NCBI RefSeq assembly: GCF_019649055.1
Contig: NW_026570227.1
Coordinates: 930,001 to 994,000 of the forward strand
Direction of reading: 5' to 3'
DNA length: 64,000 nt
Source: Paramacrobiotus metropolitanus
Taxonomy: Eukaryota; Tardigrada; Eutardigrada; Parachela; Macrobiotidae
Part shown: one piece after another, positions 4,645 to 54,670 of the stretch
Position numbering within the stretch: position 1 is the stretch's first letter
Layout: each line of letters begins with the position of its first letter
Position numbers and translations under genes: made by a program
The notes under the pieces: model-generated
What the model saw: only the letters and a program-made list of their open reading frames with translations
What the model was told of the DNA's origin: nothing
Database searches by the model: none

Positions 4645-5561
4645 TAGCTTTGTTAGTTTTTCTGCTGAACTTTGTTGGCAATTTTCATGCGGTACTAGTA
4701 GATTTTTTAACAGTTAAGCACCGAACACACACAGCTGCATATTTATAAGTATAATTGCAGTCAGCATTCTATACATTACCTTTTTATTGCCGTATACCTG
4801 GTTTTCAGTTCTTACGGTATACTCGTAATAATGTATTTTTACGCTGGCAAACTTTGTCGGACCAAGGGTAACCGTAAAAGATGCGTGTAGCAGTCTCATT
4901 CGCATACATAGATGCCCACCCAACCGCCTTTAAGATGTTCGCACAGTGTAGGTTTACGTTTGTACAGGTTACCACAGGCTTTACCGAAAGACATTTCCGT
5001 GGGATGCTCTACAACACAGATGGTATCGGACGTAGCAATATATAACCAGGCAATTAACAAGAAGTTGGATGGGGAAAACGGTGATAGAGAAGACAAGGAG
5101 GGAGCACTCTTAATAGGTTTTTAAAGTGTACAGATACCGAACTACTTTTGAGACTTCTTGCATTCTGTGGCCAGATGACCCTGATACATTATACATGCAT
5201 TGTAAATACATTGGTGAAGAACGATATGTGCGAGCAGCATCCGGTTGGGAAGATTTAGGTAATTTTTATTATTAACTGAGATTCAATGCGCCAAAAGTTG
5301 TTTTATGGACAGAGCTTTAAAGTTTGCATGTTAATGCACTGTGTGTAAATTTCAGGATTATAGCAATTTAATCAGATTTCATTTCAAATCTCAAATTGCA
5401 AAAAAATGCCAGACCTGACAAAAGCTACAGTAGATCGAACGTTTCTACCACCGGCGAGATGTGAAAAGGCAGCAGCTGGGTCTAAATGAATATATTATAT
5501 GATAGCATCGTTGTTGTCGACATTGCTGTATCTTTACATCGTCACTTCACGATTGCCATAT
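4645..5561. other. Intergenic stretch between eIF4G-like copy 1 and LRR2
   Basis: A 70-codon ORF at 4912-5124 (+) has no recognisable motif and no paralogue in the window, so I do not call it. Otherwise this is AT-rich sequence downstream of two convergent genes. Confidence 0.45.
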
Positions 5562-7573
5562 TTATTCGCAATCAGGTTCGTGCAGCGAGAAGCTTGTTGC
5601 ATTGAAGTCGACAAAACCGTTCTCCGACTTGACTTTCACGCAATCAACCGGCAGATATAACCGCCAGGGTCTTTCATAGGTGCTGCTCCATGACCCGGCT
5701 GGACTGAACACTTCTCCATCCTCGGCGGAACGCAGTAAAGCCGTATTATTGCTCCACCATCGACGAAATCCGGCAAACTCACAACTGCAGTGCAGTCTAA
5801 ACAAATAATCTCGAATTCTTCCATCTAATGGCACATCTGTCATATCGAATTCTATCGAAAGGACGCGTAAGTCAGGCAGACTGGCGAAAGCGTTCCCGTC
5901 CAGTGCACGGATGGTCGTATTATAGAACGTGATATCTCTCAGTTTCGCTGAATACTGGAAATCCGCCTTTTTCACCACAAGGTCCGCACAGTGCCACGTA
6001 TTGTACTCCAGGAGATTTGGAAGCATGAGCTGCCTAAGCTTATCGTTGTCACGTTTACCTGTGCAGTTCTTGAAACTATATTGGACGATTTGACGCCGGA
6101 CTGGAGCAATGTCGGCAAATGTGACCGGTGTCTTACCGAGGAGTTCAAGACCAACCGCACGCAGCGGAAGCTTGGCTATGGCAATCACTACTCGCCTTAT
6201 ATGATGTACACTACTTTCGTTGTTGCAGTCGGCACCCACAATCTGATATAACCCGGCATCCGGTGACGCGGTACAGTTCGCATAAGGAATGTCGTTGGGC
6301 AAACAAAGACATTCGGCCTGCAAAGCGCATTCTTCCGGGGTCATTATCCCCAGGGAAAAGTCAGGAAAATCTTCATTCTCAAAATTCCCCTTCTTGCATC
6401 CGTCGCGCCACTTATTCACATCTGAAACTTCTTAGTTGTACTCACAAATAAATTTAAAATAAACAGTGAAACATCGCAGAATGATTTTACGACTTCGAAT
6501 AAGATTTAAATAACTATTTATTTGCCGAGTAGTAACACAAATTGTTCAAAAATCTAAAATTCAACAAATGAATATTCAAATTTTGTAATCTGCAGATTAC
6601 AAATTATCTCAAAAGTAAAGTTTTCATGCTTCAAATTCACCTAATTCTTACATGGATCGTCGTTTATCGAAAATCTTTCTTGGGTGAAATCAATAGAGTT
6701 GTTGCCAAGTGGAAAAGGATCAGCAGCGCAATCAAAAGGAAGATAAAGTTCCCTTTTCACCGCGGCTATGTTGTAATGAGAGTTCGTGCGGATAGCGTAC
6801 GTATCGCTCTCGCTAACATTTCTTAACAGTCTCTCTGTACTGAGAAATTGTCGCAGCCATGCATAATCACATCCACAATGCAACCGCTTCAGATAATCTC
6901 GGAGTTCATCGTTAAACACCTCCATCTGGTACAAGTAATACTCCATTGACAACAACCGCAATCCTGGCAAGTCAGTAAAGGTGCCCTTTTCCAGATATTG
7001 CAATGTGGAGTTGGCAAATTGAATCATTCTGATTCGGAGTGACTGCCAGAAATCCGCTTTTTTAACCACTAAACCGTAGCAGTTATATGTTGTAAAATCC
7101 AATAAGTTAGCCAGGCGCAAGTCGTACAGTTTACCCGTTGCCCGAGCAGAGGTGCAATTGTAATATTCGAATGAAACGATTAACTTTCTTACAGGTGCCA
7201 CCGTGTTAAAAGTCACTTCGTCGCTGTCGTACAGGGTCAAGTCGATAGCTCGCAGTGGAGGCTTTGACAGGGACACAGCCAGTTGCTGAATTTCCGAGGC
7301 ATTAGCGCTGGCGTTGCAGTTCAGTGCCAAGCCCTGGTACATCGTGCAGTTAGCCGTCGTGTAAAAGTTGTCAGTATAGTTCGGCTGACAGTTGGCGGTG
7401 AACTGCATCCCACACTGGTCACGCGTCATTGGCTCCGTGGAAAAGACTGGGAACTCTTCCGGAACTAGTGCTGAAAACCGGCCGTTTTTGCTGTCAGTGT
7501 ATCCATAACTGAAAGTATTGTGCAGTAGTAGCAGAACAACGAGCAAACCGAAATACGAGAAAATGGAATTCAT
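5562..7573 (-). CDS. LRR2: two-module secreted LRR-like protein
   Basis: Two exons, 7573-6652 and 6421-5562, joined in phase 1, give 593 aa. I chose ATG 7573 because the signal peptide begins there (MNSIFSYFGLLVVLLLLHN) and the same start is kept in LRR3. Module 1 (about aa 20-307) has the opening motif FPVFSTEPMTRDQC, a conserved PPLRAIDLTLYDS segment, short LRRs ending in YLEKGTFTDLPGLRLLSME, and a cap LHCGCDYAWLRQFL resembling an LRR C-terminal cap. Module 2 (about aa 308-593) repeats the plan with FPDFSLGIMTPEEC, ALDGNAFASLPDLRVLSIE and LHCSCEFAGFRRWW, ending in a final Cys-Glu. No membrane segment follows, so a secreted or surface-associated protein is inferred. If the intron were retained the first module would stop four codons past the junction (PCKN-stop), so a one-module isoform is possible. 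It is an inverted duplicate of LRR3. Molecular role unknown. Confidence 0.8.
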
Positions 7574-7712
7574 GGTGCAGTTGACATTAATTATTTGGAG
7601 AAAGACCTGTTCGGATGGATGTTGTTGCGAAATCGCAGTAATGATTTGCACTTCCTGTTAACAGAAAGCACAAGTGAACAGAGCAACTGCCACTAAATTG
7701 CATCCGTTATAG

Positions 7713-7718
7713 CTTATA
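7713..7718 (-). promoter_or_regulatory. Putative TATA-like element of LRR2
   Basis: On the minus strand the sequence reads CCTGGTATAAGCT about 140 bp upstream of the LRR2 start. The inverted-duplicate flank of LRR3 has GCTGGTATAAAAG at the matching place, and the upstream block GAAAATGATAAATGAGTCTT is identical in both flanks. The conservation between arms could simply reflect recent duplication. Confidence 0.4.
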
Positions 7719-7989
7719 CCAGGCTTTTATGAACATAGAAGACTCATTTATCATTTTCTGATTTTCCTTGCGGCTTCAACTAACAGCCAACGTCTGCCGC
7801 ACAACAATTATTGACACTGAGCAGCCTCGTACCTGGATCAATAACGTTGTCACGCGTATACTGCCTCGTAATACGTGTTAATCTATCCACCGTGGCTTTT
7901 TGCTTCCAAGCAAAGCAAGAATTCTTCGTGATGCAGATGATGCACAGATGATGCACAAGGGCGGACGTGCTGCGCGGCCAACAATTTCT

Positions 7990-37583: not shown

Positions 37584-37834
37584 GTACGATTTCTCGAAAT
37601 ACGTTTACAAAATATTTAAAAATCTAGAAAGTTTTCGGTATGTATAATTTTATCTGTGCGACAATGAACTTTTAGAGCGATAACTACCTGTTAGTGTTAA
37701 CAAAAATTTTGCGGTTTATTAAGAAATTAATTTTAGTAGCGTATTTATCAGGAACTTAAAGTTTACGGCCAACTAGAGATGTGTTCTTACAGTACTTTGA
37801 TTTTTTTAATTTGTTGTAATTTTTCGTTTTTTAG

Positions 37835-37972
37835 GTTAAAGAGGAATTGTTCAACGTGTTCTGTCTGACCAGAAACCAAATGATGACGGCCCCCAAATAT
37901 TACACTGCTTTCGGCAAAGGACTCGATGCGCATCGGGAACCGGTTTTACCAGCAGTGTCTGGGATCGCGTAG
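37835..37972 (+). pseudogene. Relic of the last MA3 exon of an eIF4G-like gene, unit 1
   Basis: After a TTTTTTAG acceptor a 46-codon reading frame contains APKYYTAFGKGLDAHREPVL, which corresponds to VPKYHGAFRKWLDARLSPEQ in copy 5. No other eIF4G exons lie around it. It appears to be a fragment carried with the BTB unit when it duplicated. Confidence 0.65.
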
Positions 37973-38379
37973 TTGTTTTGGTAGATAACGATGCTTATTA
38001 CTTAAATTTTATTTTTTTATTTAAAGTGCAAGTATTTGTATTAATTCGATCGATTTCTTACCATGAGACTGGCATTTACCAACTGCTTTTGTGTTTTGTA
38101 CACATGCCCATCCTGAATCCATAAGGCTGAATTGTAGTAACCGTTTTTAATAAAATTAAATTAACAATGATTAACCGTTGATAAACTTTCAGTCTATTCA
38201 TGAATGTACCGCACTGGAAAATACACGCCGCTGCACAGAAGATTCCCCAAAAACCTAAATAAACATTACCACCGCTGACCATAAAAATCTGTCACTCCGG
38301 TTGAATAAATAAACAAGGAAGGCAAAAATTAAACAAAAAACACCAATAGAAAATCGAAGCTCTACATCGGGTCTGCCGA

Positions 38380-41300
38380 TTAATACTCCATTTCAGAGTC
38401 CGTCTCCAAGCTGTCACTGTTTGGCGCGTCCATGCCCATGGCGATGTCATTCTCCGCATCCCGAGCGATGGCCCACGCGGCAGCCGCCAGCAGTTTCTGC
38501 AGACCATGTTCCCGCGCAAAATCAAAATACTCCACCGCATCGTCCGGCGACATCCTCGCCACCATCTGCAGCATGACGCGCAGACACTCGGCACGCAGTT
38601 CCGCCATGTCGTACCGGTCAGCGGCCTCATACAGTTCCCTGGGATAAATACAAATAATTTGGAAAATAAATTTAAATATAATCGAAAATAAAATCGCTCA
38701 AATAAATAAATTAAACCAATAAATATCAAATTAAATAAAATCGAATAGAAATAAGCCGATTTTTTAAATAAAATCCAATAGAAATACACATTAATTTCAA
38801 CCTTTTAATTCTATTATACCCGTACATGTATTGTATGTCGCTTTTATAAGAGAGAAATCAAATTTGGGATAGAATAACTAGTGAGTCAGTGAGTGATATA
38901 ATCCTTGAGTAGTCTTTAACAGTTAATTAGTGAAGTCACTGTGTTTTATTAAATCAGCATGAAATTCGTTCAGTTTCTCTACTTAAAATACTCACAAACT
39001 AAAAAAAATAAACTTTTCATTTGAAACTATTTTGCCCGGCTTGATTTCCAAATTAAACGGTTTGATGAGAAACGTGAAATTCTGATTCCAACTTTACCTG
39101 ACACCGCTACCCGCTTCCACATCCGCGCGTGTGTACACAAAATGAATCAGCGCTTTCAAAGCTTCCAGACCGACATCATCGATTTCGCAAATGTTTAATT
39201 GCTCTGTCATAGTCCGAAATATACCAGCAAAGACGGGAGATTGGCCAGCCAGAAGGGCCCGATGGACGGGAAACTCCTGAGCATCGCACCGCAAAACGAC
39301 GTCCGAAAACGTCTGGGTATCCAATAACCGTTGCAAATCGGTCCGGTTGACCGCTGCGTCGCCGGGTGACCGGTCGAAGTGGAAGGTCAGTTCGACAAAC
39401 ACACTGCAGTCCTTCTGCAAAACATACATACTACCACTTTCATCGGGCAAACCCTCGTAATCCACAAGCTCACGGAGAGTGGTGATTTCATCATCTTTGG
39501 GCTCATGCCAATTGGCCATGGTGTTACATCCGGTTGAATCAATGTGGACGCTGTTGTCCCATGGTCGCTCAGCACAGGCTCTGAAAAGTCCGATCTCATG
39601 AAAAACAGCTCAGTATTCCCGGCGTAAGAGTTCGTATCCGACAAGTCGCTTTTCATGTACTATACCTGCACCTTTATCGAAGGAGGCCATGTCATGGGAT
39701 ACGTATTTTTTTAATTTTTTGCTTCGCATTTTAGCTCATAATATCGTCAAAAAAGGCCGGCATTACGGTTACGCTAGCTATTGCGATTGCGTAATATTAT
39801 TTTTGAATTACGGTAAAATGGCCCACTTTTAATCGCTTTAGCAATAACTATTTTCCTTTATCACACGGGGGATTTTGATTTAACTGTCAGATTGCAACAC
39901 TTTTCCATTAGTAATTAAATAGAAGGTTTAAATTGAAATTTTAAATAACAATAAATAAATTAATAGCTTCCGTTATCTGTCATAGTCTCCAAACGATTTC
40001 AAATTATCCCTGCACCGTTATTCACCACGCTGTATGCGTTCTACTAACCGTAAACTGACTAGCTCTTTCCCAGCACATTTCATATGTTTGAATGTTTGGA
40101 TATAACATACCGAACTCGGCACTCGACCGACACGGCAGCGGCTGTGGTCAGCTTTTCTGGCTCTTTTGGAACAACTTGAGCCTCGATATATATGTAACGG
40201 TCGTTAAACCTTGACCATTCTGTTGTGACAATCAGGCGGACAATCCATACGGAAAACGGGATCTCGGAGCGGCCGAACGACCCAACATCCACGTTAAACT
40301 CACACGTGAAATGCACGCCATCGGCACCGCGATCATCCTGGATAAACCGCTCAGTAGGGAAATTATACAGCAAATTCAGCACGCTCCGCTTGTTCACCGG
40401 CGAAATCAACGCTACCACGCCAGTTGGGTAAACTTCCCGGCCGATTACACGCGCCACAACCGCTGTCAGCGTTTGCAGATCATATGAACGGGCAAAATCA
40501 AAATACTGGATCGCTTCAGCCGGAGCGAGCCGGGCGACGGTTTCCCGCATCAAACACAGGCATTCCGTGCGCAGATCCGCTAAGTCATAAAAATCACCGG
40601 CCTTCCACAAATCCATCAAACGGCCGCCCGCAGCCACCACCGTGCGGGTGTACACAAACTGGACCAACGCTTTCACGACATCGGCAGGAAATTCGGTGAT
40701 GTGACAGATCCCCGTTGTTTTCTCCTGCATATCCGTGTTAAACATGGCCGCGAAGTAGGGTGACTGTCCAGCCAGCATGGCGCGGTGCACCCGAAATGAT
40801 TGGCCTTGACACTCCAAAGTAAAATCGCTGAGTGTACCGCAATCCAGTAAGCCTTTCAGATCGGCACGACGGCCTCTTACGTCTCCGTTCGGCGGATCCT
40901 CGTAAAAAACTAACTGGACATGGACAAAACGACCCTTTCGCAAGACATACTGGTAATTTTCATCGGCACCCTGATCAATCACCAGTGACATAAGTTCATT
41001 CGTTTCAGATGACGAGCTGCGCGGTCCTTCCGCGTTGACCTGTACCATGTTGTCCCAAAATTTTGCCGCTCCTGAGGTGGTTCCTGCCCTATTTAATGAT
41101 AAATTAAAAAGTTATTAGTAACAAGCGAGAATTTTATGGTGGTTCAATAACACATACCGCACGGTGCATTCCACGGACAGTGCCGCTGTCGCTGTTGTCT
41201 TCGTTGGCGCCTTGGGTTGAACGGACGCCGTAATGCTGCCGACCCGATACCCACCATAACCCTCCTCCTTCTCGCGAATGCGCAGTGTGACCGTCCACAC

Positions 41301-41468
41301 TGAGGCCGACATCTGCAGACAACCAGCGCCAGTATCCACCAGGATGTCCGCTGTGTAGTCCAGACCATCGGAGTGCAGATCAGCCAAGGTGAAGGCATCC
41401 GTCGGGATTCTGTAATGCAGACTTAACAGCGGCTGGCGTCGGTGGACGGGATAGGCCCAGGATGCCAT
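38380..41468 (-). CDS. Gene D, unit 1: double MATH-like/BTB/BACK protein
   Basis: Exons 41468-41158, 41088-40111, 39580-39098 and 38638-38380 join with consistent phase 2 and give 676 aa. Layout: MATH-like 1 about aa 8-103 (LLSLHYRIPTDAF ... SVWTVTLRIR ... AALSVECTVR), BTB 1 about aa 178-255 (TLSDFTLECQGQSFRVHRAM, LAGQSPYFAAMF), BACK-like helices to about aa 325, MATH-like 2 about aa 335-430 (VLNLLYNFPTERF ... VWIVRLIV ... AAVSVECRVR), BTB 2 about aa 510-585 (FSDVVLRCDAQEFPVHRALL), BACK-like 2 to the end with an acidic tail. The BTB segments and the position of the N-terminal domain match the SPOP/TDPOZ family of CUL3 ubiquitin-ligase adaptors. Assignment of the N domain as MATH is by position and its last strand, so moderately sure. 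The exon 2 to exon 3 join is what makes it one double protein; two single genes cannot be excluded without transcripts. Confidence 0.75.
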
Positions 41469-42664
41469 GACTATCGAGGCAATACGGGTTCCGCAGTCGG
41501 CAAGCACAACCCTGCGACAACTAGTCAACTACACGAAGATCGAAACGCTGTCCCCACAAAGCTTACCAGAGTTAGAGTGCGTGGTGGCAGTGATCGATCA
41601 GCAGGTAAAAAACAGAGTTACAACTGACAATTGAATTAGTACGCGACTACGCGTACTGCGAACGGAATGTGGAAGCAGGAAATCGATAACGAGAACGTCA
41701 ATTACCAGGAAAAAAATAAAAACTAAAAAGTCACTAGTAAAAATTCTAAAATGCTAAATTGAACACACGAACAGATTTGCAAAATGAAATCAGAAATGCG
41801 CGAATGCACAACTTCAACACAAGCGCTGCGCAAACATCCAGCACACTGCCCCCCACAGCGGGAGCACGGTAAGCAACTGCACTGCTGCAGGAAAAACACC
41901 AGAATCGGCGGAGCTCAACAATTTAAACTGCGATTTGTGAATGGGTTTTGTAAATCGTGATCAGTGAAGCAGTTATTATTTTAGAAATGCTTTTGTGTGC
42001 ATTTTTGAACACTCAGAGTCACGGAGAATTAAGTAACGTGAACAGCATTGGCGCGTTTTGATGATGCTTCGAGATGATACCTAATCAAATTAATGTAAAA
42101 TACAGCATGCGTATGTACAGGAGCATGATTTGCAAATGAAAATTTGTAACGCATTTTACCCTGATTTCTACTTTAATATGCCAATTAAGAGGAAAAAGGA
42201 TTTCGATCTGGAAAACAGACCGACACGTGCGCTTTGCCGCGAGAATTCACAAATTAATTAAAATGATCAAATTTATTTCACTACATTGATGGTACTAGTA
42301 GCACCAGTATCTAACCGCCGCCTGATGGTGGTAAATGAGCCAGCATTTCTACTCCAGTAAAGCTGGCGATATGTACGGTAGATCGCATTGGCAACCGCCC
42401 GCCCATTTGTTTTGGTATCCTCATAAAAAAATCTGTATAATCCTACTGCATTTTTCTGTGATAAATACAAAAATTATAACAAAAATTATAACACAACAAG
42501 AAGGAATTCCTAAGACGAAAAGAACCATGGTTTTTCCGGGAAGCTCTTCCCACACTAAACACTACAGTCTACAGACTTGAGATAACAACAAAATAGAATG
42601 GGATGTCCAGTGGACAACAAAAAACGGTATCAAAAATTAACCGGACCGAGCAAAAACCGGTTGT
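41469..42664. other. Gap between genes C and D of unit 1
   Basis: Presumed promoter region of gene D (-) and 3' end of gene C (-). The block CCCACAGCGGGAGCA is kept in the matching gap of unit 2 (about 41854 and 51045), the best candidate regulatory word. No gene. Confidence 0.5.
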
Positions 42665-45600
42665 CTATCGGCGCATTTGTTTGGCATTCGGCGCTTCCTC
42701 CTCTTCCTGTGGAGCCGGTCGACTCTTGGCGGCTTTGGCAGCGCCCGCGTGGGACAAACACAAATAATGCGCTAGATAGTCCATCGCATGACAGGACACG
42801 CCGGCCGCTTGATAACTGGCATATTCCGCCGCGTTCATCGTGGGACCTTTGGATTCTCGCAACAGGTGCGTGGCCGTGTTGACGAATGGAGAATACGGTG
42901 GTCTGCAGCAAAACATGTTACCAAATTACCATTATTCAGGTAATACAATATTCTTAGTGCCAGTTTAGTTGCAAATTCGGTCGTCTTAGAATACGTAATC
43001 ATTGAAACAGAAGAAAGGAAGAGTAAGTAATGCAGGGTGACACAAATTAAATGTCTCATTATGTCTGTAAGCATGGAATATAAAGACCGGCAAACATATA
43101 CTTCGAAGTATGGATGAAAATTAATGATAATCATAAAAATAATCAAAACAAAACAACGGTATGCCAAACAAAAAGGTATTATAAAAATTATCTGTAACAA
43201 CAGACTAGAAAGTAAAAAGAGAGATATAACGCGGGGCCATATGGGCGCCATGCGTATCCTCGACAGCGAACAGCGTGAACCCGGATGAGGCTTTATTGCC
43301 GAATCTAATGCGCACCGTGGCGCAGCAACACCAGACTAAAGAGGAAGGATTCTGCAGCCAGTGCAATTGTGCTGCAGATCCGTCAAAACAGCGCAGAAAT
43401 GTGCGGGGTGGAAATCCCCAGAAACAGCGAATAGCTACTCAGGAGGGCGGAGCGTCCCGCCCTTACAGAGAACAAACGAAAATTAATGAAAAATTAAAAC
43501 AGATAGAAAAAATCGTGAAATGTAAAATGATGATAAAGAGAAAATATCAAGGATCAAATTAAAACCGAGAAAAGCAGACAGTTGAATAAAATCTCATGAT
43601 TCTCTGGCTAATTTGCTGGCCAGCTTCGTCATCGTTGCGACGAACTTACCTGTCAGTTAAGACGGTGGCGCCGCCGGCTTGCAGGACGCGAGCGTAGCCC
43701 TTGACACGGTTGGCGTCGGCTACCAGGACAACTTTCCAGTCGGCAAAAGCGCCCTGACGGGTTCGCTGGACACGCCGACGCCAGCGGTAAGCCGCCATAG
43801 CCAGATCGTCTTCTTGGGCCGCCGTGTTGATGCAGGCCTTCTCCACATTGCCCCATTCGTACATTTCCTCCTACAAATATGGGAATAATTACTGTATTCC
43901 ATACATCAATAGGAAAATTTCGTCACTGGTTTTTTTTTTCCTTTTTCTATCAGATTTATCTATTTGTTTTTCGTTTGCAAAGTATAGAACGAAAAGGATT
44001 CAAACTACTGCATTCACCATTTTTAAAAATTTCTTTAGGGCTGCGTGCACGGGTAAACACGACCGTGGGTTTTGGACAATACTCGTGTTGTAGGTTTTAG
44101 AGTTATTCATCCTTGTCTTATCAATTTATTGATCAACGGAAACGAAACGGTATGGCAATAAAAAGAAGATTCAAAAACGATTTGCTGGCGTTGATTTAAT
44201 ATAATAATAATATTATTCATCCGATGAGTAATATTCCGCTAATAATATTTAATACTCTTACCGGAAGAAAGTGTCCTGCAGTAAGAGAATCGTGAATGTA
44301 CTGCATGTCCAGGATCCATTTGCCGGCTGCCGTATAAGCAAGAAACTTCTCATTGCGCGTCAGGACTTTGATCAACAGGTGTGTACAACCTGTCTCATAC
44401 TTGACGGAATCGATGTATCTGCCACCGAGCGACGTCACGGCGGCGATAACCCTTTGCTTTTCGGCAGCTGTGGGCACACCGGAAAAACAGAACACCGGAA
44501 AGCCCGTCCCGCTTTCCTTCATCACGCGCAGACACTCCCGGCGCAGCTCGGCAATCCCGTACCGGCCAGCCGCGGAATACAATTCCCACAGACCGCCGCT
44601 TACGTCGGCCGTCACTTCCTCCCGGGTGTACACAAACTGGATCATGGCGGCCAAGGTCTCCGCGCTGACATCGTCCACTTTTATCGCGCTGAACAGCCCT
44701 ACGTCCAACGCGTTCTGGAAGCGGGTGGCCAAGACTGGAGAGTGGTTGGCCAGCAGAGCGCGATGGATCGGGAACTCCTGGCCACCACACTCGAGGACGC
44801 CATCGCATAGAGACGGCGGATCGCGCAGACGCTGCATATCCGCCCGGGTGGTGGTGGCGTTGGACGGAATGAAAAACCCTAAGTGGATGTGGACGGTCCG
44901 GTCAGATTTTAGCTCATGTTGATACCGGGCACCATCACTGTGCGACAGCATAAAGCCTTCCACCAGATCCGTCAGATTTTCCGGACTGGACCTTTTCGGC
45001 GTCTTCGTTGCTCCGGCGGGACCGATGCGTATGAGATGGTCATACGCACTCTTCCGAGTTCTGAAAATATCGAGTAATAAGCAGGAGGTTGCAACAGGAT
45101 TTCTCAAAAATTGACAGCGGACATAGCTTTTTTTTCAAAACTGATAATTTTTTCTATTTTCAGCATGCATGTTCAGATTTTTTAAAAACATTGTTGGGTA
45201 AAACCTGAACCTGCTCAGTAAAATAAAACATTTTACAACAATGTTATTCTATCATTTTAACCGAAAATATAACTTTGACAAGAGGAATAAGAAATTGGTA
45301 GCAATTACTAAAAATTTCATTTAATTTTAGTTCAGTCGAGGCAAACCGTATCCAGAACCCAATGTCAAAGCAGCTTGCATAAGCTGAAATCGCACAAGTT
45401 AAAGCAATATAATGCAGCTGGAACATCCTCGAAACTTATGGACTCGAAATATTCTTATCATTTGTTTTTCGATGCTTCAACGGGTGCGCGTAAGTCGTAA
45501 CGCGCAGTACACGTACCCCACTTTGCAGTGGACGGACACTGCCGTAGGCGATGTCAGCTTTTCTTTCGGTCGGACATCCGCTATAACGGAGATTTCTGGT

Positions 45601-45819
45601 TCATAAGCTGTAGTCCCTTCGTCAATGGTCAGGGTGACAGTCCATTGGCCAGCCGGAATCTGCGGATAACTGGGCCCAGCGTCCACCATGAAGTTACAGG
45701 TGTAAGTAATCTGTGCTGCGACCATCATCACCCAACGATCTCGCAAACTGGTTTGTCGACAGTTGGTAGTCTAACTCCAGCAACTGCTTTCGTCTCTCAG
45801 GAAACATGCGCTTTTCCAT
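42665..45819 (-). pseudogene. Gene C, unit 1: MATH-like/BTB/tandem-BRCT gene with a frameshift in exon 1
   Basis: Exons 45819-45517, 45060-44262, 43870-43650 and 42902-42665. All junction phases match unit 2 except that exon 1 is one base too long: the frame changes near 45735 between QLSTNQFARSLGDDGRS and TYTCNFMVDAGPSYPQ. Downstream all is open: BTB (FPIHRALLANHSPVLATRF), BRCT-a (FPVFCFSGVPTAAEKQRVIA, RNEKFLAYTAAGKWILDMQY, AGHFLP), then EEMYEWGNVEKAC leading to BRCT-b (GAFADWKVVLVADANRVKGY, QAGGATVLTD, ATHLLRESKG) and an acidic/basic tail. The expected product without the extra base would be 519 aa. The single lesion could be an assembly error; otherwise this copy has lost its MATH-BTB start while a shorter BTB-BRCT protein might still start within exon 2. 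Confidence 0.7.
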
Positions 45820-45954
45820 TTCGCCCGTCACCGATGAAAACGTCACGGATAATCTGTGCACAGTGCACGCAACTGAGCCAAACAAATATATATATCTATA
45901 CAAAACAAAACAAAACCTAGTGACGTGACAATGGGGAAGTCTATTGCGAATCAC

Positions 45955-46335
45955 AAGTAAACATTGAATATTTACAGTATGGTAAGACTGGTCTCGCAGA
46001 AAGTTAAGGTAAGTACTTAAGACTTGAAAGTACAGTGCAGTTAAGTATGGTACTTGCTCGTACAGTTAAACCATAAAGTACAAAGAGTGCAGTTTAGACT
46101 GCACTCGTACAAAACGCACAAAGTTTAATTAATAACCAAAGTACAGTGCAGTGCAGTGAAGTGGTACGTACAGTACTCGACTCGTACGGTCCAAAGTTTC
46201 AAGTGCAGTGCAGTACGAGGAAAGTGCGCTCCGCTGACCGCTGCGGCTTGAGCTACTGCAGCAAGTCGCCGCCTAAAGGAGGATGTGCGGCAGCCATTCG
46301 GCATTCGACATCGTTTTCAAGAAAATAATTTTATT
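45955..46335. other. Upstream flank of gene C unit 1, rich in AGTGCAG/GTAC words
   Basis: Between about 46010 and 46215 the words CAGTGCAG, GTACAGTGCAG and CTCGTAC recur on both strands (GTGCAGTTTAGACTGCAC is a near-perfect palindrome at about 46087). It lies just upstream of the gene C start on the minus strand and may be regulatory or simple-sequence decay. Confidence 0.4.
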
Positions 46336-46435
46336 GCTTATTATCATGAACTTGTAAGTCTACAGCCAATTAGAGATGTGTTGTTACAGTATTTTGATTT
46401 TTTAGCTGTTCTAAATTGTCAGTTTTCGTTTTTAG

Positions 46436-46624
46436 GTTAAAGAGAAATCGGTCAATGTGTTCTGTCGGACCAGAAGGCGAATGATGGCATTGGCGGCCCC
46501 CAAATATGACACTGCTTTTCGCAAAGGGCTCGATGTGCGTCTGTCATCGCAACAAAAAGAGGCACTGATCAATCGAAAACCGGTTTTACCAGAAGTACCT
46601 GGAATCGCGTGGTTGTTTTGGTAG
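46436..46624 (+). pseudogene. Relic of the last MA3 exon of an eIF4G-like gene, unit 2
   Basis: A 62-codon frame after a TTTTTAG acceptor contains APKYDTAFRKGLDVRLSSQQ then KEALINRKPV, clearly the C-terminal MA3 segment seen in copies 4 and 5 (HLSLHQKEELINREPVIG). It is better preserved than its unit 1 twin. It is isolated from other eIF4G exons. Confidence 0.7.
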
Positions 46625-47026
46625 ATAACAATGCTTTTTACTTATTTTAATTTTGCTATTAAAAGTGTACTTGTGTTAATTTGAGATTTCTTACTATTTA
46701 TTAGACTGGCGTTCAGTAACTGTTTTTGTGTTTTGCAACCATGCCAATCCTGAATCCGTAAGGCTGAATTGTACGTAACTGTTTTTAACAAAATTACACA
46801 AACAATGAAATTTACTCATGAATAAACTTTCAGTTAGATCATAAAGGGCAAATGCACCGCACTGGAAAATACACGCCGCTGCACAGAAGTCTTCCCTCAA
46901 AAACCTAAATAAACTTTACCACCGCTGACCCTAACAATCTGTCACTCCGGATGAACAAAACAACAAGCCTTAACAAGGCAAAAATTAAGCGAAAACACAA
47001 ATAAAAGCTCGAATCTGTTATGCCGA

Positions 47027-50000
47027 TTAATCCTCCATTTCCCAGTCCGTCTCCGAGCTGTCACTGTCGGAATCAGACACGTTTGGCGTGTCCACTGCGT
47101 CGCCATTCTCCGCATCCCGAGCGATAGCCCACGCGGCAGCCGCCAGCAGTTTCTCCAGACCATGTTCCCGCGCAAAATCAAAATAATCAACCGCATCGTC
47201 CGGCGACATCCTGGCCACCATCTGCTGCATCACGCGCAGACACTCGGCCCGCAAATCCGCCATGTCGTACCGGTCAGCGGCTTCATACAGTTCCCTGGGA
47301 TAAAACACAACAATTTACGCCGTTTTTTTTAAATAAAATCGAATAAAAACAAAGTTTAATTTGAATTTTTAAAATCTATTATATTTGTGTATGTTTACCT
47401 TTATAACAAAGAAATCCAACTGTGAATAATAATAGCGACTCAGTGACTGATATGATCCGTTAGTCATAACAGTTACTGGGATCACTGTGTTTTACTAAAC
47501 CTGCTTTAAATCAGATTAATTTCTCCCCTCGAATATTCAGAAAACCCAAAATGCTAAATTCTTCTTCTGAAACCATTTTGCCCGGCATGATTTCCAAGGG
47601 GTTTGATGTGCAAACTGAAATTATGTTTTCAGCTTTACCTGACACCGCTACCCGCTTCCACATCCGCGCGTGTGTACACGTAGTGAATTAACGCTCTCAA
47701 AGCATCCGGACCGATATCATCGATTTCGCAAATTTTCGATTGCTCTGTCATATTTCGAAATCTACCAGCAAAGACGGGCGATTGACTAGCCAAAAGGACC
47801 TGATGGACAGGGAATTCCTGGCCTTCGCACCGCAAGATGACGTCCGAAAAGCTCTGGGACTCCAATAACCGTTGCAAGTCGGTCCGGTTGACCGCTGCGT
47901 CGCCGCGTGACCGATCAAAATGGAAGGTCAGTTCGACAAACACACTGCGATCCTTCTGCAAGACACAGGCTTTACCAGTGCCAGCGGGCAAATCCTCGGA
48001 GCCCACAAGCTTCCAGAGAGAGATGTCGTCCTCTTCTTTGGGCTCAGCATAATTACATCAGGTTGAATCAATCTGGACGGTGTTGTCCCATGATCGTTCA
48101 GCACTGGCTCTGCAAAGTACGATCCCGTAAAAATCAGCATGGTACTATGTTTCCTACGTTATTTCCCGGTGTAAAAGTGCTTGCGTGTCTGACCAAATCG
48201 CTTTTTATGTACATTTATCGAATGACATTTATCAGGCGACGTCAAAAAGAGCGTAAATAGGTTTTAAATTTAAGCTTTTAAAAATGTCTAATTTTTTAAT
48301 TATTATTATTATCTGTACATAAAATAATACATTCTGTGAAATAACATTAAATTTTCACAGAAGGTCGATAATATGGCAATGTTATGTGCAGATAATAACA
48401 ACAATAGTAATAAATATCATTGCGAATAATTATGGTAAAATAGTCGACTTTTCACGCACTTATCTTTAATTTCTTTCCTCTATCAAACGGTGTTCTGTAA
48501 CTTACAGCAACTGTTGATTTGCAACACTGCGTTGCATTATTGATTGAATATAAGAATTAATTTAAAATTAAATTCAAATTTAAATTAGTAATAATTTATA
48601 TTGAAAATTTGAATAAAGTGTAAGAGACTTCCCAGAGACTATAAAGTATAAGTCACTGAAACTCATATTTAATAAGAGTTTCAGTTACTTATACTTTATA
48701 GTCTCTGAGACGATTCAAAATATCTCTGCACTGTTACTATCACGCCGCACGTGTTCATTAAAACTGGCTAGCCATTTTCGAAGCGCGTTTCGTATGTTTG
48801 GATACAACATACCGAATATCGGCACCCAACCGACACGGCAGCGGCTGTTGTCAGCTTTTCTGGCTCTTTTGGAATGACGTCTGTCTCGATGTGTGGCTTG
48901 TACACTCTACAGCCTGTTCTGGTGGCAATCAACCGGACAATCCACACAGAAAACGGAATCTCCGAGCGGCCGAACGACCCCACATCCACGTTAAACTCAC
49001 ATGTGAAATAAACGCCATCGGCACCGCGATCATCCCGGATAAACCGTTCCGTCGGGAGTTTATACAACAAATTCAGCACATTGCGCTTACCCACCGGCGA
49101 AATCAACGCTTCTACTCCCGTTGGGTAGAATCCCCGGCCAATTACCCGCGCCGCAGCCGTTCTCAACGTAGGAAGATTGTAAAAACGGGCAAAATCAAAA
49201 TACTCCATTGCATCATCCGGTGCCAGTCGGGCGACGGTCTCCCGCATCAAACACAGGCATTCCGTGCGAAGATCCGCAAAGTCGTAGAAATCACCGGCCC
49301 TCCATAAATTCATCAAACTGTCGCCCGATGCCACCACCGTGCGGGTGTACACAAACTGGACCAACGCTTTCACGACATCGGCAGGAAATTCGTGGATGTG
49401 ACAGATCCCGGTTAATTTCTCCTGCATATCGGTGTTAAACATGGCCGTGAAGTAGGGCGACTGTCCGGCCAAAATAGCACGATGTGCCCGAATTTCTTGG
49501 CCGCCACACTCCAGCGTAAAGTCGCAGAGTGTCTGGGAATCCAGTAAGCCTTTCAGGTCGGCACGACGGCTGGTTAAGTCTCCATCTGGCTGATCCGCGT
49601 AAAAAACTAACTGAACATGGACGGAACGGCCTTTTCGCAAGTCATACTGGTAATTGCGATAGGGATCCTTTTTAATCACCAGTGACGTAAGGGCATCCGA
49701 AGCAGTAGAAGTGCTGCGCGATCCTTGCGCTGTGATTCGTACCCTGTTGTCGCAAAACTCTCCCACTCCAGCTCTAGAAGCAATAATACCGAAAATAACA
49801 AGCGTGAGCTAAATGAGAAAAACTGAAAAATATTTGAGAATTTTTATAAAGGCAATTTGGGCAACCATCAAAATGCAGAACCTCGGAAACTTTCCATCGT
49901 TGCCGTTTTTGTAATCATTGCCTTTCGTTCTACCTATTTTATACTTCATTTTGTCCACAGAGTCGTCAAAAGCTCAGATGTAAATTATAGTCAACTTAAA

Positions 50001-50746
50001 GATAAACTACTTAATAATTTTAATATGTACCAAATTAAAATAATAATACCAAATTATAATTTTAATATTAACATGTACCAACTGCGATGATTAGCAGAAT
50101 ACCCAAAAACATCACAAGGCAAACAAATAAGCACTTGCTAATCCGAAAAAATTTACTAATCAAGGTGAATCGGAAATAGGTATAAAAATACGCAGCTAAA
50201 TTTTTAAAAAACATCAAAACATAAAGACAACAACGAATGTAAAAGGTGGAGCACACGTCTAATGCAGTAAAACGAATATGGAATATTACAGTGCGATATC
50301 TGTAAGCTTTAAAAACCTAAGAAGCTCTAATTCTAAAACTCCTTCCACAAAATACAAGCTCGCATACCAGAAAGTGTCAGAAAATAAGGGTTGTTTGTAC
50401 AAATACAGTGTTAATACACATACCGCACAGTGCATTCCACCGACAACGCCGCGGCCGCTTTCGTCTTCCCTGGCGCCGTGGGTCCAACGGACGCCGTAAC
50501 GCTGCAGACCCGATCCTCATCACCATCACCATAATATTCACTGAGCTCCTCCCGAATGTGCAGTTTAACGGTCCACTCTGACGGCGGAATCTGGGAGCAA
50601 CGGGTGCCCGCATCCACCTGGATGCTGGCTGTGTAGTCCAGGCCATCGGAGTGCAGATCCGCCAAAGTGAACGCATCCGTCGGGATTCTGTACTGCAGAC
50701 TGAACAGCGGCTGGCGTCGCTGGATTGGATAGGCCCAGGATAGCAT
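47027..50746 (-). pseudogene. Gene D, unit 2: second half disconnected by lesions
   Basis: Exons by homology: 50746-50424, 49773-48813, 48109-47639, 47294-47027. The first half is open: MATH-like 1 (LLFSLQYRIPTDAF-type start MLSWAYPIQRRQ), BTB 1 (TLCDFTLECGGQEIRAHRAI), MATH-like 2. At its end an extra base (CGATATTCG where unit 1 has CGAGTTCG) changes the junction from phase 2 to phase 0. Exon 3 has an in-frame TGA near 48058, where unit 1 has GGA, and no ATG before BTB 2. Thus the two halves can no longer be joined. A protein of one MATH-BTB-MATH block could still be made by reading into the intron (ending in TRFENG). BTB 2 (FSDVILRCEGQEFPVHQVLL) and its tail remain otherwise intact. Confidence 0.7.
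48634..48706. repeat. 31-bp near-perfect hairpin in the gene D unit 2 intron
   Basis: The left arm 48634-48664 (AGAGACTATAAAGTATAAGT continuing CACTGAAACTC) and right arm 48676-48706 are complementary with one mismatch; the loop is 11 nt (ATATTTAATAA). The matching intron in unit 1 has only the outer TCATAGTCTCC part and no hairpin, so it arose after the duplication. Confidence 0.85.
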
Positions 50747-51880
50747 GACACAGATCAAGGCAACGGGTTTGACAATCGGCGGCAATCGAAGCGCTGCCCA
50801 CGAGGTAACCAGGGTACAGTGCGTTGTGGCAGTGATCAAGCTTCAGCCGCAATGAAAACTGAAAAACAGTTACAACCGAAAATCAATTTTGAACGCAGAC
50901 AAAACCGAATGGAAGAACAGCGAAAAATGCACCAAAAGAACGTCAAACGGCAGTAAAAGTCGCAAAATTGCAGTACGAGTACTTAATTTGCAAGATGAAA
51001 TCCGTAAGGCGCAATCGCTGAACTGAAACATCTTACAAACCGCCTGCCCACAGCGGGAGCAACACAAACAGATAAAATTTATAACCTGCATATACATAAT
51101 TACATACTGACTGGCCAGTGGCCTCCGAGAAAAACAACAGAACGAGCAAATCCGAACTATTAAAAACGCAATTTGCAAAAATGTTAACTTGCCAGCGATT
51201 CTTTTGGAAATGGTTTTCTGTGCGTTTTTGACACGCAGAGTCTCGGAGAAATAACCTTACTACCGCAAACCGTATTAGCAGTTGCAGCGCTTGGATGCAT
51301 TTCGAGATGAGCTCTAAGCCTCTAATCAAATTTCATTTCAAACTGTATACGTTAATACGTATATGGTTTCCAGTTAAAATGGATTTATTCTAATTCCTAA
51401 TTTAATATTCTTGACCCCGATTCAAGTGGAATGAAATCAGGAAAACAGGTCGAAATACTCACTACACTACAGTGTAGTGGTGTACGTGTACAAAGTCCTT
51501 TTATTACGCAGTGACGCTAGTGCAATGCAGTAGTTAACTGCCGTCTGAGGGTGGTAAGTAAGTGTGGCGCGCATTTCCGTCAAGCTTGTCAGATATGTAG
51601 GTCGTACTGGCAACCGCTCGCTAATGTTTTTTTCCCCGTATAACAAAGCTGAAAAATGCTGCCGTACTGCCGACATCTTTTATTCCACAGAATAAATACA
51701 AAAAAGTAAATACAACGAGAAAGAACGTCTAAAACAAATAGCACCAGGGTTTCCCGGGAAGCTCATTCCCCGATATCAAAACTAAAAACTTCGGAAATAA
51801 CAAAAAAGCCACGGAAAGCCCATTTATGGACAGAAAACGGTACTCCCATAGAAACTGAGTGGGCAGAGTAAAACCGGTCA
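50747..51880. other. Gap between genes C and D of unit 2
   Basis: Matches the 41.5-42.7 kb gap of unit 1 in layout, including CCCACAGCGGGAGCAAC at about 51045. No gene. Confidence 0.5.
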
Positions 51881-54382
51881 TCATCGGCGCATGTGTTTGG
51901 CACTCGGTGCAAGCTCTTCCTCCTCCTGCGGAGCCGGTCGACTCTTGGCTGCTTTGGCCGCGTCCCCGTGGGGTTGGCACAAGTAGCGCCCCAAATAGTC
52001 CATCCCGTGACAAGCCACACCGGCATCCTCAAAACACGCCAGTTCCGCCGCATTCATCGCGGAACCTTTCGTTTCGCGTAAGAGATGCGTGGCCGCGCTG
52101 ACGAAAGGAGAATACGGCGGTCTGCAGCAAGAGATTTAAGTGCATACAGATAGTACCATTTCAGAAAATTATTAAAACAAACTTTATTAATTTCACTTAA
52201 AATTTCAAAATAATATTTAACATTAAATAAAGGCAATAATGAATTTGGGGGGCACAAATAAAATATCCGCAGCCATAGAATAAAAATCTGGTATGCATAA
52301 TAATGATTGTTTATTAGAAAAATAATCAAAAACGTTCAAATAACAAACGGTATGTGCTATGTAGAACAAAGCAGCGATGAAACAATTTTTTGTGACGATA
52401 GAATGAAAAGAGCTATATGTATTTTAATTAACAAAATATCAATTACCAAATATAACATTGTCCAAATAAGGAAGGCATGCAATGTAGAATGGCGAAATGG
52501 TGATTAAAGATAATATTAAATTTCGCAACGATTCCAAAAAGATACACGACAAATTCCTAAAAAATCCAGTGGGAGCAACTTATGGTCAGTCATGATACCC
52601 AGAAATATTTTGTAGGCCGCCTCTTCAGCGTTGCGGTGAGCTTACTTGTCGGTTAAGAGGGTGGCGCCTCCGGCTTGCAGGACACGAGCGTAGGCTGCGT
52701 AGCCCTTGGCACGGTTGGCCTCGGCCACCAGGACAACTTTCCAGTCGGCAAAAGCGCCCTGACCGGTTCGCTCGACACACCGGCGCCAGCGGCATGCCGC
52801 CATAGCGAGATCGCTTTCTTGGGCCGTCGTGTTGATGCAGGTTTTCTCCACATTGCCCCATTCGTACATGTCCTCCTATATAAACCGGAATGTTTATAAA
52901 CGGGGATATTTATCTCATTTAAAAATGATAAAAGACTTAATCATTAATTTGGAAATTAATTAGCAACTACTAACAACACTGTCCTGGTGCAGTGGTGCTT
53001 CATACGAGTACAAACAAAATTTGGCGCAAATAAATGCTCGTAGGTTTTAAAGTTACTCTGTAGTTTTCCCTGTCTTCTCAGTTTATTGGTCAACGGAAAT
53101 GAAACGACAAGGAAATAAAGAAGATCCGAAAAATTAACAACTAATGGCTTTTATTGAACATTATAATTCATCCAGTACTGAGAAATGAGGAGCAAATATT
53201 CTTACCGGCAGAAAGTGTCCCGCGGTAAGGGAATCCTGAATGTACTGCATGTGCAGGATCCATTTGCCGGCCGCCGCAAACGCCAGAAATTTCTCATTGC
53301 GCGTGGGGGCCCGGATCAGCAGATGCGTGCCACCGGCCTCATACGTGAGGGAATCAATGTACTGACCACCGAGCGACTTGACCGCGGCGATAACCGCCTG
53401 CTTCTCGGCTTCCACGTGCAACCCAGAAAAACAGAACACCGGAAAGCCCGTCTCCCTTTCCCGCAGCACGCGCACACACTCCCGGCGCAGCTCCGCCATC
53501 CCGTACCGACCAGCCGCGGAATACAACTGCAACAGGCCGCCGGTCACATCGGCCGTCACCGCCGCGCGGCTGTATACAAACTCCAACATGGCGGCCAAGG
53601 TCTCCGCGCTGACATCGTCAACGTCCATAGTTGTCGACGGTCCCTCGTCCATCGCGTTCTGGAAGCGGGCAGCAAAGACGGGAGAGTGGGTGGCCAGAAG
53701 GAAGCGGTGGATCGGGAACTCCCGATCAGCACACTGGAGGACGCCATCATGCACCTGCTGGTCGCGCAGACGCTGTATGTCCGCCTGGGTGGTAGGGGTG
53801 GTGGACGGAATGCGGAACGTCAAATAAACGTGCACCGTCCGGTCGGAGCAGAGGATATGCTGATCCTTGGAACCATAACTGTGCGACGGACGGATGTCTT
53901 CCATCAGATCACTAAGATCAGCCTGATTTTCGGGTTTGGACGTTTTCGTTGCTCCTTTGGGACCGATGCGTAAGAGATGATCATATGATCTGGATTTCCT
54001 GGCTCTGAACACATCACAAATTAGGCAGGAAGTTCAAGTTAAATTCCCAATATACGTATCTGTACACGTACCGCACTTTGCAGTGGACGGACACTGGCGT
54101 GGCCGACGTCAGCTTTTTATCTTTGGGATGCACAGCCGCCGCGACCGACAATTCCGGATCACCATAATCCCCGACTCCGTCTACCACCGTCAATGTGACG
54201 GTCCACTGGCCACACTCGATCTGCGGATAACTGGGCCCTGCGTTCACCATGAAATCGCACGTGTAGTTCAAATGGCCATCGGCGTCCAGAGATTTGAAAA
54301 ACCGATCCGTTGGCAGTTGGTAGTGGAGCTCCAACAACTGCTCGCGTCGCATAGGAAACATGCACATTCTCCCGATGTCCAT
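51881..54382 (-). CDS. Gene C, unit 2: MATH-like/BTB fused to TopBP1-like tandem BRCT
   Basis: Exons 54382-54072, 54004-53206, 52875-52646 and 52121-51881 have consistent phases (2, 0, 2) and give 526 aa. MATH-like about aa 15-103 (LLELHYQLPTDRFF, GQWTVTLTVV, PVSVHCKVR). BTB about aa 178-275 (DGVLQCADREFPIHRFLLAT, HSPVFAARF, MLEFVYSR, AELRRECVRVL). BRCT-a about aa 291-370 (FPVFCFSGLHVEAEKQAVIA, LGGQYIDSLTYEAGGTHLLI, RNEKFLAFAAAGKWILHMQY, AGHFLP). A bridge EEDMYEWGNVEKTC then leads to BRCT-b about aa 405-500 (GAFADWKVVLVAEANRAKGY, QAGGATLLTD, AATHLLRETKG). The order RNEKxLAxxAAGKW, AGHF, EEDxYEWG, LAxAAxRWR, GAFxxWKV is that of the BRCT7-BRCT8 end of TopBP1 as I know it. Known: SPOP-type MATH-BTB proteins bring substrates to CUL3; BRCT pairs bind phosphopeptides. 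Inferred: an adaptor joining the two. ATG 54382 is the first in-frame ATG. Confidence 0.85.
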
Positions 54383-54670
54383 GTCGCTGATGAATGCGTC
54401 ACTATAATGCAATAATCTGCAGCTAACAAGCAGCCAAACCAAACCATGGATACAAACTACAAATACAGAGAAGCAAACTACAGATAGCACTTGAGGAAGA
54501 TAACAGCGAAAACTGAAAATAAGAATCCCAATAATACTTGCTGTACGTTTATGGTCAGCTGGACTCGTACACAGTAATCACGGTAAAAATGCGCTGCGCT
54601 GTGGACTGTGGTGAGTGTGGCGTAAAGCTGTTCCAGCAGACCGCCGCCTAGAGCGGTATGGCGTTACACA

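What the first reader, a model, noticed from the sequence alone, without database searches (positions are those of the whole stretch)
51881..54382. MATH-BTB protein fused to a TopBP1-type BRCT7-BRCT8 pair
Seen: four in-phase exons encode a SPOP-like MATH-like/BTB start followed by two BRCT domains with the TopBP1 C-terminal hallmarks RNEKFLAFAAAGKW, AGHFLP, EEDMYEWG and GAFADWKVV. Known: SPOP-type proteins recruit substrates to CUL3 through BTB; TopBP1 BRCT7/8 binds phosphopeptides in DNA-damage signalling. Inference: this is a chimeric adaptor that could send a phosphorylated checkpoint partner to ubiquitination, or act as a rival of TopBP1. I know of no described protein with this layout.
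Basis: partly seen in the sequence, partly recalled or inferred. Interest (0 to 1): 0.92.

Follow-up and report, generated by a model that had tools for sequence, protein, structure and literature searches.

The report
BTB–TopBP1 BRCT fusion gene pair
In an animal genome that is probably a tardigrade's, the tail of the DNA-damage scaffold protein TopBP1 has been copied onto a protein-pairing BTB domain, giving a new gene that exists in two diverged copies and still looks functional.

Summary
Four exons with GT-AG introns encode 526 aa. BTB and BRCT7 share one stop-free exon and BRCT8 follows. The C-terminal part best matches human TopBP1 BRCT7/8 (E 4e-32; SLF1 4e-21).

A and B differ at dS about 0.5, yet dN/dS is 0.22 over the BRCT part and 0.48 over BTB. 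That argues against artefact or pseudogene. The donor, a TopBP1-type gene, is still in the genome: same introns, 73-74% identity. A diverged second TopBP1-like gene exists too.

Two points weaken. No MATH domain was detected in 7 of 7 family members. CUL3 recruitment is doubtful: the 3-box is gone, a contact Met is Arg in both copies, and B lost the motif glutamate. The lysine I infer to bind phosphate is kept.

Best reading: a BTB-dimerised BRCT7/8 module that competes for, or bridges, TopBP1 partners. No RNA or binding evidence.

The parts
54072..54382 (-). Copy A exon 1: start codon and N-terminal domain of unknown family
   Evidence: in-frame splice; 20 matches in the genome of which 17 are outside A and B; no Pfam match
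53206..54004 (-). Copy A exon 2: end of the N-terminal part, BTB and BRCT7 in one open exon
53458..53772 (-). BTB domain (residues 182-286)
   Evidence: PF00651 E 2e-18; SPOP first among PDB chains
53206..53442 (-). BRCT7 (residues 292-370); DNA homology to the C85 TopBP1-type gene begins at 53442, the fusion point
52646..52875 (-). Copy A exon 3: first part of BRCT8
   Evidence: PF23294 E 4e-8 on the exon frame
51881..52121 (-). Copy A exon 4: rest of BRCT8, C-terminal tail and stop; AATAAA 196 nt after the stop
45517..45819 (-). Copy B exon 1, net 8 nt shorter than in A and shifted in frame; an in-frame ATG follows at 45728
44262..45060 (-). Copy B exon 2: BTB and BRCT7, intact
   Evidence: 68% identity to A
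43650..43870 (-). Copy B exon 3: BRCT8 first part
42665..42902 (-). Copy B exon 4: BRCT8 rest and stop
37721..45846 (.). Tandem block copy 1: two other BTB units and fusion B
   Evidence: self-comparison
46319..54402 (.). Tandem block copy 2: two other BTB units and fusion A
   Evidence: self-comparison

Best explanation
A genomic segment with the last exons of a TopBP1-type gene (introns, stop codon and some 3' UTR included) was joined inside coding sequence to a SPOP-like BTB gene right after the BTB core, replacing its 3-box. The chimera was then duplicated in tandem with its neighbours. Shown here: structure, donor, duplication, and sequence constraint. Inferred: the protein dimerises through BTB and presents two BRCT7/8 modules to the phosphorylated (FANCJ/BRIP1-type) or other partners of TopBP1 BRCT7/8. 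As it lacks the BRCT0-2 recruitment modules and the ATR-activating region, it would act as a competitor or bridging dimer that tunes TopBP1/ATR signalling, and not chiefly as a CUL3 adaptor.
For: BTB and BRCT7 share one open exon. The same junction occurs in two copies with dS about 0.5. dN/dS A-B: BRCT part 0.217 (bootstrap 0.142-0.321, 231 codons), BTB 0.479 (0.283-0.825, 113 codons), exons 2-4 together 0.343 (0.263-0.453, 418 codons). The lysine of RNEK, which I infer to be human K1317, the phosphate-binding lysine of BRCT7 (PMC4374139, passages), is kept in A and B. The BRCT branches of A (0.16) and B (0.13) are not longer than the donor's (0.18). The 3-box is absent and residues whose change in KLHL3 severely disrupts Cul3 binding differ: M78 position Arg in both copies, E85 position Val in B. 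BRCT7&8 is dispensable for recruitment and lets the ATR-activating domain multimerise (PMC9257406, abstract and passages), so BTB-linked BRCT7/8 without those modules is a plausible competitor.
Against: No transcript, dimerisation or binding data. Copy A keeps phi-x-E (M-D-E), so some CUL3 contact is possible. The neighbouring non-fusion unit a2 also has Arg at the M78 position, so that change is not special to the fusion. The fusion's BTB is not more conserved than the BTB of the neighbour duplicated with it (0.48 against 0.286, intervals overlap). The place of K1317 is inferred, and other pocket residues were not tested. The exon-2 model is weak (mean pLDDT 56.8), and the 50 Foldseek rows shown of 1496 are BTB-type chains, none a BRCT chain.
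Confidence: 0.45

Rival explanations
1. CUL3 substrate adaptor: BTB binds CUL3 and BRCT7/8 selects phosphorylated checkpoint proteins for ubiquitination.
For: SPOP is the best PDB match of the BTB part. A keeps M-D-E at phi-x-E and Ala at the A77 position. BTB dN/dS interval lies below 1.
Against: 3-box missing in both copies, kept by the 5 non-fusion relatives aligned. SPOP BTB alone binds Cul3 far more weakly than BTB-BACK (1.0 mM, as printed, against 13 nM; PMC3616122, passages). M78 position is Arg in both copies; B has Thr at the A77 and Val at the E85 position.
Confidence: 0.25
2. A heterodimer scaffold: its BTB pairs with other BTB proteins of the large family in this genome and tethers them, with any CUL3 activity of the partner, to phosphorylated damage-response proteins.
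For: 114 matches to the exon-2 frame in the genome, only two of which (C85:103741, C40:725482) cover the BRCT stretch alone. The 5 non-fusion relatives aligned keep Met, M-x-E and the 3-box.
Against: No evidence for heterodimers; inference only.
Confidence: 0.15
3. A chimera without function that is drifting, with copy B already damaged.
For: Net frameshift in exon 1 of B. The region before BTB has dN/dS 0.572 with an interval reaching 1.023.
Against: Exons 2-4 are open in both copies at dS about 0.5, with lengths 799/799, 230/221 and 241/238. BRCT dN/dS is 0.217, and the BTB interval lies below 1.
Confidence: 0.1
4. Gene-model or assembly artefact: two neighbouring genes read as one.
For: No RNA evidence is available here.
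Against: BTB and BRCT7 lie in the same open exon in two diverged copies.
Confidence: 0.03

Closest known systems
TopBP1 BRCT7/8 (human structures 3al2, 3al3, 7cmz)
   Same: Tandem BRCT pair, 41% (A) and 43% (B) identity over the aligned part of 7cmz; PDB match E about 4e-32; intron phases shared with both TopBP1-like genes of this genome
   Different: No BRCT0-6 and no ATR-activating region in the 526 aa; a BTB domain sits in front
SPOP and other MATH-BTB CUL3 adaptors
   Same: BTB domain, best PDB match SPOP (E 5e-10); a further domain before BTB
   Different: No detectable MATH, no 3-box/BACK, Cul3 contact residues partly changed, BRCT pair at the C-terminus
SLF1
   Same: Related BRCT pair of the same Pfam family, joined to another module (ankyrin, recalled)
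   Different: Scores lower than TopBP1 (E 3.5e-21 against 4e-32); no BTB (recalled)
SLX4/BTBD12
   Same: A BTB protein of DNA repair that binds TOPBP1 through phosphosite T1260 (PMC12661054, passages)
   Different: Binds BRCT1/2 of TOPBP1; has no BRCT pair of its own (recalled)

Membership tests
BTB/POZ domain proteins | BTB core over its whole length | tested here: met
   PF00651 positions 3-108 of 110, E 2e-18; the 50 Foldseek rows shown are BTB-type chains
MATH-BTB (SPOP-type) | MATH domain before BTB | tested here: not met
   no MATH match in 7 of 7 members at E up to 10; the genome search with PF00917 found nothing, but its controls did not ring either; the fold of the N-terminal domain was not modelled
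CUL3 adaptor | phi-x-E motif in BTB | tested here: inconclusive
   A M-D-E kept, B L-D-V; motif from PMC3616122, placed by ungapped alignment to SPOP and recalled KLHL3 sequence
CUL3 adaptor | 3-box/BACK after BTB | tested here: not met
   replaced by BRCT7 in A and B; the 5 non-fusion relatives aligned keep it
CUL3 adaptor | physical binding to CUL3 | not testable with these tools
   needs protein work
TopBP1 C-terminal BRCT7/8 module | sequence family of the BRCT pair | tested here: met
   PF23294 40 bits, cut-off 27; TopBP1 chains first at about 4e-32; 73-74% identical to the C85 gene
TopBP1 C-terminal BRCT7/8 module | phosphate-binding lysine (human K1317) | tested here: met
   Lys of RNEK kept in A, B and donor; that this is K1317 is inferred
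TopBP1 C-terminal BRCT7/8 module | binding of a phosphopeptide | not testable with these tools
   needs protein work
TopBP1 orthologue | BRCT0-6 and ATR-activating region before BRCT7/8 | tested here: not met
   Pfam finds BTB and the BRCT pair only in the 526 aa

The most novel reading that the evidence does not exclude
A lineage-specific checkpoint protein: BTB-driven dimers of the TopBP1 BRCT7/8 module, kept in two copies beside TopBP1-type genes, that set the threshold of ATR signalling by competing for, or multimerising, TopBP1 and its partners, a natural counterpart of an engineered dominant regulator.
Probability: 0.3. Interest if true: 0.78.

Novelty: new variant of a known kind. Interest (0 to 1): 0.6.

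Why it matters
BTB and BRCT domains are both well-studied modules, and my searches found no description of the two in one protein. No paper held all of tardigrade, BTB and BRCT or four of five fusion terms. The single hit concerns TOPBP1 and SLX4 as separate proteins. A survey of BTB architectures in 17 genomes has no occurrence of BRCT in its main text (PMC1257465). These searches cover open-licence papers only. If the protein works as inferred, the same BRCT7/8 module exists in one genome both within TopBP1 and on a dimerising domain, so the effect of forced dimerisation of BRCT7/8 on ATR becomes directly testable with natural proteins. If the animal is a tardigrade, a duplicated checkpoint chimera would also bear on radiation tolerance; nothing here tests that.

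Tried and rejected
My first idea that the CUL3 phi-x-E motif was the M-F-E of SPOP, and so lost in A, was wrong. PMC3616122 (passages) gives KLHL3 M83-S84-E85, which A keeps as M-D-E. Corrected.

MATH was tested by Pfam on 7 members, by a profile search of PDB chains (60 of 114 rows shown) and by a genome search with the MATH model (uninformative since its controls did not ring). None gave support. The N-terminal part of A alone had only chance-level PDB matches (E 0.46 and 0.55).

Exon 2 with 4 window sequences gave mean pLDDT 56.8; Foldseek recognised the BTB half in the 50 rows shown of 1496. The BRCT half was not seen among them. The viral and VIA-align libraries were not used.

Assembly or gene-model artefact was rejected because a second diverged copy has the same junction. 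Loss of function of exons 2-4 was rejected by dN/dS. Controls: the neighbouring BTB unit b, duplicated in the same block, has BTB-core dN/dS 0.286 (0.14-0.60, 109 codons), its exon 2 with 3-box 0.435 (0.28-0.67, 209 codons) and its exon 1 0.525 (0.27-0.91, 94 codons). The fusion's BTB (0.479) is therefore ordinary for its family, which does not favour a special role of the BTB.

Other BTB+BRCT genes in this genome: I compared by eye the lists (114 places; 14 places); only A and B have both in one gene. Both lists are lower bounds.

Not tested: expression, orthologues in other animals, presence of FANCJ and CUL3 in the genome, the species.

Full report
What is there. Exon 2 is decisive: the 290-aa open frame 54033-53161 holds a complete BTB domain and, directly after it, BRCT7. 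BRCT8 is split between exons 3 and 4 and is recognised by Pfam BRCT_TopB1_SLF1 at 40 bits against a cut-off of 27. The general BRCT model on BRCT7 is borderline in A (20.2 bits against 21.3) and passes in B (25.2). A sequence search of PDB chains puts human TopBP1 BRCT7/8 first (E about 4e-32) and SLF1 next (E 3.5e-21). The BTB part finds SPOP first (E 5e-10).

A second copy. The window holds another fusion gene, copy B, at 45819-42665, with the same exons, intron phases and BTB/BRCT7 junction. Self-comparison shows that 37721-45846 and 46319-54402 are tandem copies of one block, which also holds two further BTB units. B exon 1 is 303 nt against 311 nt in A and is shifted in frame. The protein may start at the in-frame ATG at 45728, or the shift may be a sequencing error; this is not resolved. 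Exons 2-4 of B are open; their lengths in A and B are 799/799, 230/221 and 241/238.

Selection. Between A and B, dS over exons 2-4 is 0.509 and dN 0.175, so dN/dS is 0.343 (bootstrap 0.263-0.453, 418 codons). By part: before BTB 0.572 (0.316-1.023, 74 codons), BTB 0.479 (0.283-0.825, 113 codons), BRCT7-8 with tail 0.217 (0.142-0.321, 231 codons). Against the donor, the BRCT part gives 0.260 for A and 0.203 for B (229 codons each). The neighbouring BTB unit of the same block, as control, gives 0.286 over its BTB core (0.14-0.60). The BRCT part is thus the most constrained, and the BTB part is constrained about as the family is. In a five-sequence protein tree the branches of A (0.16) and B (0.13) are not longer than the donor's (0.18); the split of A+B from the donor has modest support, 74.6/70. 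These are Nei-Gojobori estimates of my own script, with codon bootstrap.

Origin. The genome has 169.8 Mb in 533 contigs, and the window is C7:930001-994000. A TopBP1-type gene on C85 aligns with the fusion over its last three exons, through the stop codon, with the same intron positions. Identity over BRCT7/8 is 73% to A and 74% to B. DNA homology begins at window 53442, inside the donor's BRCT7 exon, and runs 103 nt beyond the stop in A and 54 nt in B. Introns came along, so the copy was made from genomic DNA. The C85 gene has further BRCT exons upstream. A second, diverged TopBP1-like gene lies on C40: 37-38% identity to the others of this genome, the same intron phases, and a BRCT exon upstream. 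On the BTB side, the ten best matches after A, B and C85 are 37-46% identical, and the 5 non-fusion relatives aligned continue into a helical tail, aligned by profile with the SPOP region after BTB, which the fusion lacks.

MATH and CUL3. None of 7 family members matches the MATH model, so the N-terminal domain is of unknown family; its fold was not tested. For CUL3, the KLHL3-Cul3 paper (PMC3616122, passages read) gives phi-x-E as M83-S84-E85, reports that A77E, M78V and E85A severely disrupt binding, and that the SPOP BACK region is needed for full affinity. By ungapped alignment A has Ala, Arg and M-D-E, and B has Thr, Arg and L-D-V. The 5 aligned relatives have Met and M-x-E, but the neighbouring units a and a2 have Ile and Arg at the Met position, so that change is not unique to the fusion. 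The adaptor model is weakened for A and poor for B; it is not excluded for A.

Likely mechanism. TopBP1 BRCT7&8 is dispensable for recruitment to breaks and lets the ATR-activating domain multimerise (PMC9257406, abstract and passages). Its only phosphorylation-dependent ligand characterised at the time of the 2021 review is FANCJ/BACH1 (PMC8651625, passages). K1317 is its phosphate-binding lysine (PMC4374139, passages), which I place by inference at the lysine of RNEK, kept in A and B. MATH-BTB-type long-form BTB domains are predicted to dimerise (PMC1257465, passages). I infer a dimeric BRCT7/8 reader without recruitment or activation modules, hence a competitor or bridge for TopBP1 partners. 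None of the binding steps is shown. The structure model of exon 2 is of low confidence (mean pLDDT 56.8); it supports the BTB half in the Foldseek rows shown and adds nothing for the BRCT half.

Novelty. Full-text searches found no paper with tardigrade, BTB and BRCT and none with four of BRCT domain, BTB domain, gene fusion, chimeric gene and TopBP1. One paper matched BRCT, BTB, domain architecture and fusion; its single BTB refers to SLX4. Four papers hold tardigrade and TopBP1 (listing); in the one opened, TopBP1 occurs once, in a list of annotated genes (PMC6797769, passages). Only open-licence papers were searched, and no protein database of animals was searchable here.

Noticed in passing
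window 41111-40083 and 49808-48771 (-): In both tandem blocks one open frame (343 and 346 aa) runs from a BTB with 3-box straight into the N-terminal exon of the next BTB unit, suggesting a double N-domain-BTB protein; dN/dS of the part beyond the 3-box is 0.299 between the copies (0.18-0.49).
   Followed up: partly
G000 C85:103103-110100 and C40:725482-728384: The genome has two TopBP1-type genes only 38% identical over BRCT7/8 but with the same intron phases there.
   Followed up: partly
G000 contigs C216, C101, C132, C70, C8, C59: Clusters of BTB exons: 114 matches in this genome to the exon-2 frame of the fusion, a lower bound.
   Followed up: no
window 54072-54382 (exon 1): N-terminal domain with an invariant W-T-V in 7 aligned members and no Pfam match; 17 further places outside A and B match it (20 matches in all). 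It may be an undescribed domain paired with BTB.
   Followed up: partly
window 5526-7824 and 12097-9792: Inverted repeat of about 2.3 kb, 80% identical.
   Followed up: no
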